Assembly: GCF_009755885.1 (NCBI RefSeq)
Contig: NZ_VYIX01000002.1
Coordinates: 963,923-1,027,922, forward strand
Direction of reading: 5' to 3'
Length of the DNA: 64,000 nt
Source of the DNA: Brachyspira sp. SAP_772
Lineage (GTDB): Bacteria > Spirochaetota > Brachyspiria > Brachyspirales > Brachyspiraceae
Shown here: positions 40,655 through 42,851 of the stretch, in pieces
Layout of the letters: each line of letters opens with the position of its first letter
Numbering within the stretch: the first letter of the stretch is position 1
Program-made: the position numbers and the translations under genes
The notes under the pieces: generated by a model
Database searches by the model: none
Seen by the model: only the letters and a program-made list of their open reading frames with translations
What the model was told of the DNA's origin: nothing

Positions 40655-41161
40655 ATGATGAGATTGTTTATTAGTTTAGTTACAGTTTTGTTTTTAGCTT
40701 CTTGTACAGCTTCAAACAAGAAAGAAGAAGATAATACTGTTGCAGAAGTTGTTGCTGATTATGTTCAAGTGGATTCTCCAAACTCTTTTATTCCTTTAGG
40801 CATAGGTATTACAGTAACTCCTCCGGAACATGGGCAAAATGCTAAATATTTTATAGCTAATAAAGATGTTGCCGAAGTTAATTTTGACTATATGAATAAT
40901 AATTATACTTACAGAGCTTCAAAAAATACTAATAATTTACTTTCATTTTATGGTGATTATATTAATAGCGGAAAAAATTTTACAGAAGAAGAAAAGAACA
41001 TTGTTGTAGAATATAATACCACTTCAAATAATGAAAAGTTTACCTTATGGAGAGTAGATGATATTTATTATATATTGTCAACACAGGCAGAAGATGATAA
41101 GGATTTAACTAATCTTTCATCGCTTTATATAAAGTCTATATATTGGCATAAAGGCAAATAA
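40655..41161 (+). CDS. Lipoprotein of unknown function
   Basis: 168 residues. Lipobox LASC with Cys17, then a Lys/Glu-rich stretch. A beta-rich body (YVQVDSPNSFIPLGIGITVTPPEHGQNAKYF, NYTYRASKNTNNLL, FTLWRVDDIYYIL) follows. No family recognised. AGAGG is 8 bases before the ATG at 40655. A terminator at 41192-41225 ends it. Confidence 0.82.
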   Translation: MMRLFISLVTVLFLASCTASNKKEEDNTVAEVVADYVQVDSPNSFIPLGIGITVTPPEHGQNAKYFIANKDVAEVNFDYMNNNYTYRASKNTNNLLSFYGDYINSGKNFTEEEKNIVVEYNTTSNNEKFTLWRVDDIYYILSTQAEDDKDLTNLSSLYIKSIYWHKGK

Positions 41162-41191
41162 ATATAAATAAACATAATAAAATATAAAATT

Positions 41192-41225
41192 AGGCATATG
41201 GATTTTTTATCTGTATGCCTTTTTT
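41192..41225 (+). terminator. Rho-independent terminator
   Basis: AGGCATA (41192-41198) pairs with TATGCCT (41214-41220), with an inner GAT/ATC, then TTTTT. Confidence 0.85.
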
Positions 41226-41226
41226 A

Positions 41227-41254
41227 TTGACATTTTTTATAGTGTAAATATAAT
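41227..41254 (+). promoter_or_regulatory. Promoter of the ABC-F gene
   Basis: TTGACA (41227-41232), 16 bases, TATAAT (41249-41254). It lies directly after the upstream terminator. The leader is about 75 bases. Confidence 0.75.
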
Positions 41255-41269
41255 ATAACTATGTGATAA

Positions 41270-41338
41270 ATATATTAACCAAAAATAAAAAACATTTTTT
41301 TGTTTAAATTAATTATTTTTTATGAGGGGTTAATATAT
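41270..41338 (+). promoter_or_regulatory. Leader stem hiding the ABC-F start codon
   Basis: ATATATTAACC (41270-41280) pairs perfectly over 11 bp with GGTTAATATAT (41328-41338). The second arm holds the last two G of the GAGGGG ribosome site and the first two bases of the ATG at 41337. The loop is 47 bases and AT-rich. Confidence 0.55.
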
Positions 41339-42851
41339 GTTTGTGAAATTCAATAAAGTTTCTTTTTCTTATGATAGTTCTGATAATATATTAAATGATG
41401 TTTCTTTTCATATAGATAATACCTGCACTGCAATAGTAGGCGAAAACGGATGTGGTAAAACTACGCTTGCTAAACTTATAACAGGTATATTAAAGCCTAA
41501 TTTTGGAAGTATAGAATATTCAAATAAAAATATTATAAGTGCTTACTGTAATCAAGAGTGTGTTGATTTGCCCAATAATGCTGAAAGTTTGTTTTATGAT
41601 AACAGTTCATATTCAGGATATTTAACATCAATATTTAAAATAGATTATAGTTATTTATATAGGTTTGATACTCTTAGTTTTGGAGAGAGAAAAAGGCTTC
41701 AAATAGCTTCTGCATTATATTCTAATCCTGATATATTAGTATTAGATGAACCTACTAATCATATTGATAATGAATGTAAAGATATACTTATTAATGTTAT
41801 AAAAAGGCTTGATTGTATTGTTATAATTATTAGTCATGATATTGATTTTCTTGATGAATTAGTTTCTAAATGCATATTTATAAGGAATGGGGAGTGCAAA
41901 ATAAGAATAGGCAATTATACGCAATGCAGAGGCTATGAAAGAGATGAGGAAAAGTATAATTTCAGTTTATATGAAGAAAGTAAGAAAAAATCTAAAATAT
42001 TAGAAAATAGATATAAAAAACTTCAAAATGAGTCAGATGCTAAAAAAAGCAAATTTGGAAGTAAAAGACATATAGATAAAAAAGACCATGATGCTAAAGC
42101 AAAAGTTGATGCTGCAAGACTTACAGGAAAAGATGCAAAACTTGCTGCAAAAGCTAAGCAGGCAAAAAGTTTATATAATAAAAGTATAGTAGAAAAAGAG
42201 GCTATATATATAAAAAAGAGAGAAGTTATGAATATGGAGTTTATAGGAGAAAAATATAAAGGGAAGTTTTTATTTTATCTTGAAGCTGGAGAAACAAAAA
42301 TAAATAATATAGTTTTTAAAAATCCTGAACTTATAATAAAGAAAGACAGCAGAGTAGGTATTGAAGGAGTAAACGGTGCAGGCAAAACTACTTTATTAAA
42401 TTATATACTAGAAACAATGTATGATAATTCTATAAGTAAAGAGAAAATAGTATATATACCTCAAGATATAGACAGAGACGATTGGAATGACACTTTTAAT
42501 AATATAAAAGCATTAAATCATGAATCATTGGGCTTTTTAATGAGCTTTGTAAACAGACTTGGAAGCAATGCTAAATCTGTTATTAATTCATTAAATCATA
42601 GCCCTGGAGAAATGCGTAAAATAATGCTTGGTATGGCAGTTATAAAAAATCCATATATTATAATATTAGATGAGCCTACTAATCATCTTGATATAGATTC
42701 TATAGAGCGTTTAGAAGAGGCTTTAATTTCTTTTAATTGTGCTTTGCTTATAGTAAGTCATAATAAAAATTTTTTAAAGAGAATAGTTGATACAAAATGG
42801 ATATTAAATAAAACTAATGATTATACTATTATTAATATAGAAAATAAATAA
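41337..42851 (+). CDS. ABC-F ATPase, probable ribosome protection / antibiotic resistance type
   Basis: 504 residues with two ABC domains and no membrane segments. Walker A GENGCGKTT and GVNGAGKTT; signature LSFGERKRLQI in the first domain and a degenerate HSPGEMRK in the second; Walker B ILVLDEPTNHID and IIILDEPTNHLD. A Lys-rich linker (about 205-320) separates them and would reach the ribosomal exit-site region. ABC-F proteins of about 500 residues include drug-resistance factors; Brachyspira carries one, tva(A), for pleuromutilins, and this could be that gene or a relative. Not provable without comparison. Confidence 0.85.
   Translation: MFVKFNKVSFSYDSSDNILNDVSFHIDNTCTAIVGENGCGKTTLAKLITGILKPNFGSIEYSNKNIISAYCNQECVDLPNNAESLFYDNSSYSGYLTSIFKIDYSYLYRFDTLSFGERKRLQIASALYSNPDILVLDEPTNHIDNECKDILINVIKRLDCIVIIISHDIDFLDELVSKCIFIRNGECKIRIGNYTQCRGYERDEEKYNFSLYEESKKKSKILENRYKKLQNESDAKKSKFGSKRHIDKKDHDAKAKVDAARLTGKDAKLAAKAKQAKSLYNKSIVEKEAIYIKKREVMNMEFIGEKYKGKFLFYLEAGETKINNIVFKNPELIIKKDSRVGIEGVNGAGKTTLLNYILETMYDNSISKEKIVYIPQDIDRDDWNDTFNNIKALNHESLGFLMSFVNRLGSNAKSVINSLNHSPGEMRKIMLGMAVIKNPYIIILDEPTNHLDIDSIERLEEALISFNCALLIVSHNKNFLKRIVDTKWILNKTNDYTIINIENK

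What the first reader, a model, noticed from the sequence alone, without database searches (positions are those of the whole stretch)
41227..41339. Leader stem that masks the start of an ABC-F resistance-type gene
An 11-bp perfect stem joins 41270-41280 with 41328-41338, burying part of the GAGGGG site and the first two bases of ATG 41337. A consensus promoter gives a 75-base leader. Drug-resistance ABC-F genes are often controlled by leader structures that open when the ribosome is inhibited. Here an in-leader ATG AGG GGT TAA (41322-41333) overlaps the ribosome site.
Basis: partly seen in the sequence, partly recalled or inferred. Interest (0 to 1): 0.55.

Follow-up and report, generated by a model that had tools for sequence, protein, structure and literature searches.

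The report
Start-stop leader of a resistance gene
The gene for a probable pleuromutilin-resistance protein in a gut spirochaete is preceded by a conserved RNA hairpin that hides its start, and the messenger appears to begin with a start codon followed at once by a stop codon, which could let a drug-trapped ribosome switch the gene on.

Summary
The stem is real: 41270-41280 pairs perfectly with 41328-41338 over part of the GAGGGG site and AT of the ATG. The promoter is 12/12 consensus and the scan finds no terminator inside the leader. The gene is a tva-type ABC-F. In eight Brachyspira loci (seven long open frames, one ending early, plus one broken copy; five upstream contexts), the leader accompanies the gene, its key blocks are conserved far beyond synonymous sites, and the stem persists: perfect in four, weakened in four. 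What is conserved in 8 of 8 is ATG-T(A/G)A, a start codon followed at once by a stop, 6 nt after the -10 box (predicted +1), between variable bases. Blocking +1..+16, a ribosome footprint on that AUG, eases opening of the hidden ribosome site in 7 of 8 folding calculations; in G014 it does not. Leaderless genes with this spacing look common in Brachyspira. Best reading: a translational attenuator in which a pleuromutilin-type drug traps a ribosome on a 5'-terminal AUG-stop and opens the stem. Known relatives (vmlR, cplR) use 3-codon uORFs and a terminator. No transcription start or induction has been measured.

The parts
41192..41220 (+). intrinsic-terminator-like hairpin (12 pairs) with T run, end of the upstream gene; would insulate the tva promoter
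   Evidence: the only terminator-like site in 41150-41400; shuffles mean 0.0
41227..41254 (+). sigma-70-type promoter TTGACA - 16 nt - TATAAT
   Evidence: 12/12; promoter-like hexamers at the same place in the aligned loci, with base changes
41261..41266 (+). AUG-UGA start-stop at the predicted transcription start, 6 nt after the -10 box
   Evidence: ATG-T(A/G)A in 8 of 8 leaders at the same spacing; transcription start predicted, not mapped
41270..41280 (+). 5' arm of masking stem P1
   Evidence: TATATTAACC identical in 7 of 8; mean pairwise identity 0.977
41290..41305 (+). apical hairpin AAACA-loop-UGUUU; arm letters change together in other leaders
   Evidence: suggestive only, hand-compared
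41324..41329 (+). Shine-Dalgarno GAGGGG of the ABC-F gene, partly inside P1
41328..41338 (+). 3' arm of masking stem P1, overlapping SD and AT of ATG
41337..42851 (+). tva-type ABC-F ribosomal protection protein, 504 aa
   Evidence: (NF000355, 414.5 bits, cut-off 380)
41322..41333 (+).

Best explanation
Translational attenuator triggered at initiation. Transcription starts at or next to A41261, so the mRNA begins AUG-UGA. Without drug, a ribosome that binds the 5'-terminal AUG finds a stop codon next and leaves without elongating; stem P1 stays closed over the Shine-Dalgarno and start of the ABC-F gene and translation is low. A drug that holds initiating ribosomes on start codons (pleuromutilins, probably other peptidyl-transferase inhibitors) pins a ribosome on the leader AUG. 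Its downstream edge (about +16) lies over the 5' arm of P1, the stem cannot form, and the resistance protein is made. The immediate stop keeps a ribosome from running into P1 and opening it when no drug is present. Shown by computation: the conserved elements, their positions, and the predicted relief of masking. Inferred: transcription start, leaderless initiation at this AUG, drug trapping there, induction.
For: ATG followed by TAA or TGA in 8 of 8 leaders, always 6 nt after the -10 hexamer, with no other leader start codon shared by all. That 7-mer (ATGTRAT) is 92% identical pairwise, only the A/G inside the stop varying, and the 5' arm 98%, against 42% for the 6 nt between -10 and ATG and 39% upstream of the promoter (ungapped; 26 of 28 pairs, two close pairs left out). 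Fourfold-degenerate columns are invariant in 23 of 80 across 7 genes. By my parsimony on the gene tree (some branches weakly supported) the A/G position changed three times, always stop to stop, while the other six positions never changed. Positions +1..+5 are unpaired in 8 of 8 minimum-energy folds, so pairing does not explain their conservation (+6 and +7 pair with codon 3 in several). Cost of opening SD-to-AUG falls when +1..+16 is blocked in 7 of 8 leaders, e.g. 9.3 to 4.0 kcal/mol in the window; the relief is reached by 0 of 200 shuffled leaders in five, 4 and 10 of 200 in two more. Leaderless initiation is plausible: 22 of 40 sampled promoter-ATG sites with this spacing in two Brachyspira genomes open into frames of 60 aa or more. 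Precedent: retapamulin traps ribosomes on start codons and induces the E. coli toiL-controlled topAI reporter about 600-fold (PMC12121999, passages); vmlR-cognate drugs stall initiating ribosomes, and the vmlR uORF start gives a toeprint at +16 (PMC9226507 section 23).
Against: No transcription start, translation of the AUG-stop or induction has been measured. G014 shows no predicted masking or relief (3.4 kcal/mol; relief -0.6; 160 of 200 shuffles as good), and G022 and G021 are not masked more than shuffled leaders (53 and 62 of 200). Control blocks: the next 16-nt block, which also covers the arm, lowers the cost about as much, and in G022 several other blocks do too, so there the effect is not specific. 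P1 shows almost no covariation: 0 of 10 pairs change on both sides and the covariation term is unfavourable, +0.53. ATG-stop at +1 is not enriched genus-wide: 33 ATGTRA hits against 585 ATG hits (my sum), about 6%, by my rough estimate no more than base composition gives. One other gene of this genome (Rex-like, my reading of the frame) has ATGTAA 6 nt after a second, overlapping TATAAT (L159). Only eight leaders, related to each other.
Confidence: 0.5

Rival explanations
1. A constitutive damping hairpin: P1 lowers basal translation of a costly ABC-F protein, is not drug-responsive, and the AUG-stop is irrelevant or merely stabilises the 5' end.
For: Stem kept in consensus; masking above most shuffled leaders in 5 of 8.
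Against: Does not explain the unpaired, invariant AUG-stop at +1 in 8 of 8 nor the near-invariant 5' arm.
Confidence: 0.22
2. The conserved ATGTRAT is a DNA or transcription element (operator half-site or initial transcribed sequence), and regulation is at the promoter.
For: Two other recurrent ATGTRA-at-+1 promoter families in the genus look like palindromic operators (ATGTAACCGGTTACAT before a PTS-like gene; GTAAAGATAATTTAC before a small exported protein).
Against: The tva element is not palindromic and the linker to the next conserved block varies from 3 to 5 nt; every change in it keeps a stop codon; among 100 listed strong promoters of this genome (of 118) I found ATGTRA 5-7 nt after the matched -10 only at tva (read by eye; the Rex-like gene in L159 has it only if an overlapping second -10 is used).
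Confidence: 0.13
3. Transcription attenuation with a longer uORF from another transcription start, as in vmlR or cplR.
For: vmlR and cplR, the two PLSA ABC-F leaders whose descriptions I read, combine a uORF with a terminator.
Against: No terminator-like site inside the leader; the only one (41192-41220) lies upstream of the promoter; no shared longer uORF; likeness between loci with different neighbours falls off upstream of the promoter, apart from the T run of a terminator-like hairpin in some.
Confidence: 0.08
4. Chance: an AT-rich leader with an accidental stem and accidental start-stop.
For: Fold z only -1.44; 11-bp inverted repeats arise in 7% of shuffles.
Against: Conservation in 8 of 8 across several genomic contexts with synonymous sites much diverged.
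Confidence: 0.05

Closest known systems
Bacillus subtilis vmlR leader (PMC9226507; abstract and sections 18 and 23 read)
   Same: ABC-F for pleuromutilin, lincosamide and streptogramin A; cognate drugs stall initiating ribosomes on a very short uORF and free an otherwise hidden SD
   Different: 219-nt leader with SD-driven uORF Met-Ile-Asn, antiterminator and intrinsic terminator; here a 76-nt leader, no terminator found, no SD, and the 'uORF' is AUG-stop
Clostridioides difficile cplR leader (PMC10201436; passages)
   Same: short uORF, SD hidden in a stem, retapamulin and lincomycin response needing the uORF start codon
   Different: uORF MR[I/M] and premature transcription termination; 212-nt upstream region; firmicute
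E. coli toiL uORF of topAI-yjhQ (PMC12121999; passages and section 13)
   Same: uORF pairs with the downstream ribosome-binding site; retapamulin, which stalls ribosomes at start codons, induces about 600-fold
   Different: full uORF with SD, Rho termination, toxin-antitoxin gene rather than a resistance gene
Start-stop sites seen by retapamulin ribosome profiling (Meydan 2019, not held; seen as cited in PMC11955535, passages)
   Same: an initiation codon followed directly by a stop, found by trapping with a pleuromutilin
   Different: E. coli sites, and 18 putative Campylobacter sites of 2-3 codons described as internal out-of-frame; not known to me as a leaderless sensor before a resistance gene
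tva(A)/tva(B) of Brachyspira (PMC6018095; abstract and passages)
   Same: 505 vs 504 aa, ABC-F, Brachyspira; locus L039 has the published tva(A) neighbours
   Different: leader regulation not mentioned in the passages seen; 'promoter' and 'attenuation' occur 0 times in the main text

Membership tests
Antibiotic-resistance / ribosomal protection ABC-F | two ABC domains matching the ribosomal-protection ABC-F model above its cut-off | tested here: met
   NF000355, 414.5 bits against cut-off 380; named resistance subfamilies (Msr, Sal, Vga, Lsa) far below their cut-offs
Antibiotic-resistance / ribosomal protection ABC-F | confers ribosomal drug resistance | not testable with these tools
   only the tva(A) literature (title of the E. 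coli study seen in a reference list)
tva(A)/tva(B) | Brachyspira ABC-F of about 505 aa, about 86% between the two named variants | tested here: inconclusive
   504 aa; 81.5-86.4% to six other Brachyspira copies; one copy (L039, 1518 bp) has the published tva(A) neighbours MATE, oxidoreductase, cell-division protein (frames read by me); the named sequences themselves are not held
uORF-controlled PLSA ABC-F leader (vmlR/cplR kind) | short uORF of 3-4 codons with its own SD | tested here: not met
   the only shared start codon is followed by a stop and has no SD
uORF-controlled PLSA ABC-F leader (vmlR/cplR kind) | intrinsic terminator inside the leader | tested here: not met
   (window leader only)
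uORF-controlled PLSA ABC-F leader (vmlR/cplR kind) | SD of the resistance gene masked by a stem that a start-codon-bound ribosome would break | tested here: met
   relief predicted in 7 of 8 leaders (not G014); masking above most shuffles in 5 of 8
uORF-controlled PLSA ABC-F leader (vmlR/cplR kind) | drug induction | not testable with these tools
   no expression data held
Rfam families | match to a curated RNA family | tested here: not met
   two sub-threshold matches, neither over the leader

The most novel reading that the evidence does not exclude
A drug sensor reduced to its minimum: a leaderless mRNA whose 5' end is AUG-stop, so that the only event sensed is whether an initiating ribosome gets stuck, with no nascent chain, no Shine-Dalgarno and no terminator; conserved before a pleuromutilin-resistance gene that sits at several places in Brachyspira genomes together with this leader.
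Probability: 0.42. Interest if true: 0.75.

Novelty: new variant of a known kind. Interest (0 to 1): 0.6.

Why it matters
If true, tva-type resistance is inducible, which bears on isolates that carry tva(A) but test susceptible (four such isolates noted in PMC12131820, passages). It would be the shortest drug-sensing uORF I know of, a translational attenuator in a spirochaete, and a kind that searches for encoded leader peptides would overlook. It also gives a clean test of what a leaderless start codon senses.

Tried and rejected
The in-leader ATG AGG GGT TAA as a uORF: not conserved. A 14-codon GTG frame at 41263: cut short or absent in other leaders. A longer shared leader peptide: none. 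Known RNA family: none. ATG-stop at +1 as a general rule of Brachyspira promoters: not enriched. Another gene with ATG-stop near +1 (L116 and L089) does not keep it in B. alvinipulli (L155). Copies of the leader away from tva: the DNA search gave the eight tva loci first; 23 of 26 genomes had some match, but the best elsewhere is 50 bits over partial AT-rich stretches, which I did not inspect. The AUG-stop-plus-arm pattern gave ten matches, eight at tva and two in G008 and G010 in near-identical sequence, in G010 inside a coding frame. Relatives outside the genus (L059-L062) are other ABC-F types whose leaders I printed but did not analyse further. Relatives in IMG/VR and plasmids: none found. 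Apical hairpin covariation (AACA/UGUU, AGUG/CACU, AAGC/GCUU, AAGC/GUUU, AAGU/GCUU) rests on a hand comparison; single hairpins are matched by 4-20% of shuffles, and in G021 that hairpin is not among the three best listed, so it is called suggestive. PADLOC matches look like ordinary ABC/AAA ATPase cross-matches.

Full report
What is there. At 41337-42851 it encodes a 504-aa protein with two ABC domains that passes NCBIfam's ribosomal-protection ABC-F model, 414.5 bits against a cut-off of 380. Upstream come, in order, a terminator-like hairpin 41192-41220, a 12/12 consensus promoter 41227-41254, and a 76-nt leader. By energy alone it is not remarkable (z -1.44). A perfect partner for the fixed 3' arm is rare in shuffled leaders (10 of 20000), though 11-bp inverted repeats as such are not (137 of 2000).

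The gene. Of 26 genomes of the genus, seven including this one hold a near full-length match at 82-100% identity and one (G012) a broken copy; G023 ends early. A transposase-like frame lies downstream in G012 (L016). Pairwise protein identity among the seven is 80-96%. Length and identity fit tva(A)/tva(B), the pleuromutilin genes of B. hyodysenteriae and B. pilosicoli (505 aa; 86% between them; PMC6018095, abstract and passages). Locus L039 (1518 bp) has the neighbours published for tva(A): MATE exporter, oxidoreductase and cell-division protein (my reading of the frames). The window copy sits elsewhere, beside a CTP-synthase-like gene and a lipoprotein-like gene on one side and a peptide-binding-protein-like gene on the other (names from recall). 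The named tva sequences are not held here, so 'tva-type' is an inference.

Leader conservation. All eight leaders align. By the nearest upstream frame there are five contexts (oxidoreductase in three, sugar-permease-like in two, and one each). Upstream of the promoter the loci share little (39% mean pairwise identity, ungapped), apart from the T run of a terminator-like hairpin in some; the six bases between -10 and ATG share 42%; the 7-mer ATGTRAT is 92% and the 5' arm 98% identical (two close pairs, G022-G023 and G014-G012, left out, 26 of 28 pairs used). Fourfold-degenerate columns are invariant in 23 of 80 over seven genes (G012 left out). Promoter, leader and gene therefore appear to move and be selected as a unit.

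The start-stop. Listing every ATG, GTG and TTG in the eight leaders gives one start codon common to all: an ATG exactly 6 nt after the -10 hexamer, where transcription should begin, followed at once by TAA (5 leaders) or TGA (3). On the gene tree this needs three A/G changes by my parsimony (G012 placed by its likeness to G014; some branches have low support, and another order could need two), each keeping a stop, with no change in the other six positions.

Is ATG-stop at +1 a general promoter feature? No. TTGAC-N17-19-TATAAT-N5-7-ATGTRA occurs 33 times in 26 genomes (reversed-pattern control 1; 4 are tva; the four other tva leaders deviate from this strict pattern). The same promoter followed by any ATG occurs 585 times (my sum of the counts). 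The 33 include two recurrent families that look like palindromic operators (20 loci read). In this genome, among 100 listed of 118 promoters (read by eye), only tva has it 5-7 nt after the matched -10; a Rex-like gene has ATGTAA 6 nt after an overlapping second TATAAT (L159), and L116 has ATGTGA at 4 nt. The case rests on conservation, not on enrichment. The same searches showed that leaderless genes look common: of 40 promoter-ATG sites sampled from G001 (the first 20 of 48) and G002 (20 of 27; the seven left out include tva and one other ATGTAA site), 22 open into frames of 60 aa or more, one of them repetitive (L140).

Structure. RNAalifold finds the 10-bp P1 as the consensus of eight leaders, with no pair changed on both sides, so covariation does not support it; the window, B. 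alvinipulli, G023 and G012 keep it perfect, G015 has one wobble, and G014, G022 and G021 have a mismatch or deletion. In the minimum-energy folds of seven leaders (all but the window's) the helix extends through the AUG into the first codons, and +1..+5 stay unpaired in all eight. The cost of opening SD-to-AUG exceeds that of most shuffled leaders in five (window 7, B. alvinipulli 0, G023 4, G015 0, G012 8 of 200 shuffles as high) but not in G022 (53), G021 (62) or G014 (126). Blocking +1..+16 lowers this cost more than in most shuffles for seven (0/200 in five, 4/200 in G012, 10/200 in G022) and not for G014 (160/200). As controls, 16-nt blocks were slid along the leader: the block next to the footprint, which also covers part of the arm, lowers the cost about as much; blocks further on mostly do not, except in G022 (several) and G014 (no effect either way). 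An apical hairpin (41290-41305 in the window) has arms that differ but stay complementary in several leaders; this is suggestive only.

How it probably works. Pleuromutilins hold ribosomes on start codons: passages in PMC12121999, PMC9841429 and PMC11955535, and section 23 of PMC9226507, where the toeprint on the vmlR uORF lies 16 nt downstream of the A of its AUG. In the tva-type leader, +16 from the 5' AUG falls inside the 5' arm of P1. A trapped ribosome would keep P1 open and expose the ABC-F start. The immediate stop would make undisturbed ribosomes leave without elongating through P1. Start site, leaderless initiation, trapping and induction are inferred; none was measured.

Comparison. 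It works like the vmlR, cplR and toiL leaders but fails two features of the vmlR/cplR kind: a multi-codon uORF (vmlR MIN; cplR MR[I/M]; VmlR2 MK[L/Q]; LsaA MAGN), with its own SD in vmlR, and an internal terminator. I file it as a new variant of ribosome-stalling control of PLSA ABC-F genes. Literature searches (open-licence PMC papers only; listings, and passages of the papers named here) showed me no description of the tva leader or of an AUG-stop as a resistance sensor; Meydan 2019 and the E. coli tva(A) study are not held.

Verdict. Observation confirmed; interpretation right in kind, wrong in its uORF; mechanism committed to at 0.5.

Noticed in passing
L110 (G000:C2:878800), L112 (G000:C2:361360), L113 (G000:C2:752830); L119-L158: Many strong promoters in Brachyspira have an ATG 5-7 nt after the -10 box opening directly into a long frame (22 of 40 sampled), often members of one recurring family ('..LNDYFIRYLF..'): leaderless mRNAs look widespread.
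   Followed up: partly
L104, L106, L108: Perfect palindrome ATGTAACCGGTTACAT at +1 before a PTS-like gene in several Brachyspira: probable repressor operator.
   Followed up: no
L091, L092, L094, L096, L100, L103, L105; L118 in the window's genome: GTAAAGATAATTTAC at or near +1 before small exported proteins: probable shared operator.
   Followed up: no
L116, L089, L155: A gene starting MPKIEDLERLGS has ATG-stop near +1 in two genomes but not in B. alvinipulli.
   Followed up: partly
L159 (G000:C2:70700-71960, minus strand): A Rex-like gene (my reading of the frame) has ATGTAATAAAA between its promoter and its start, 6 nt after a second, overlapping TATAAT; no tva-type arm follows.
   Followed up: partly
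L016 (G012): tva-type gene broken, with a small deletion near its start and a transposase-like frame downstream; leader still intact.
   Followed up: no
window 41192-41220: Terminator-like hairpin whose T run almost touches the -35 box; similar hairpin-plus-T-run sequence, by eye, at the same place in B. alvinipulli, G022, G014 and G012.
   Followed up: no
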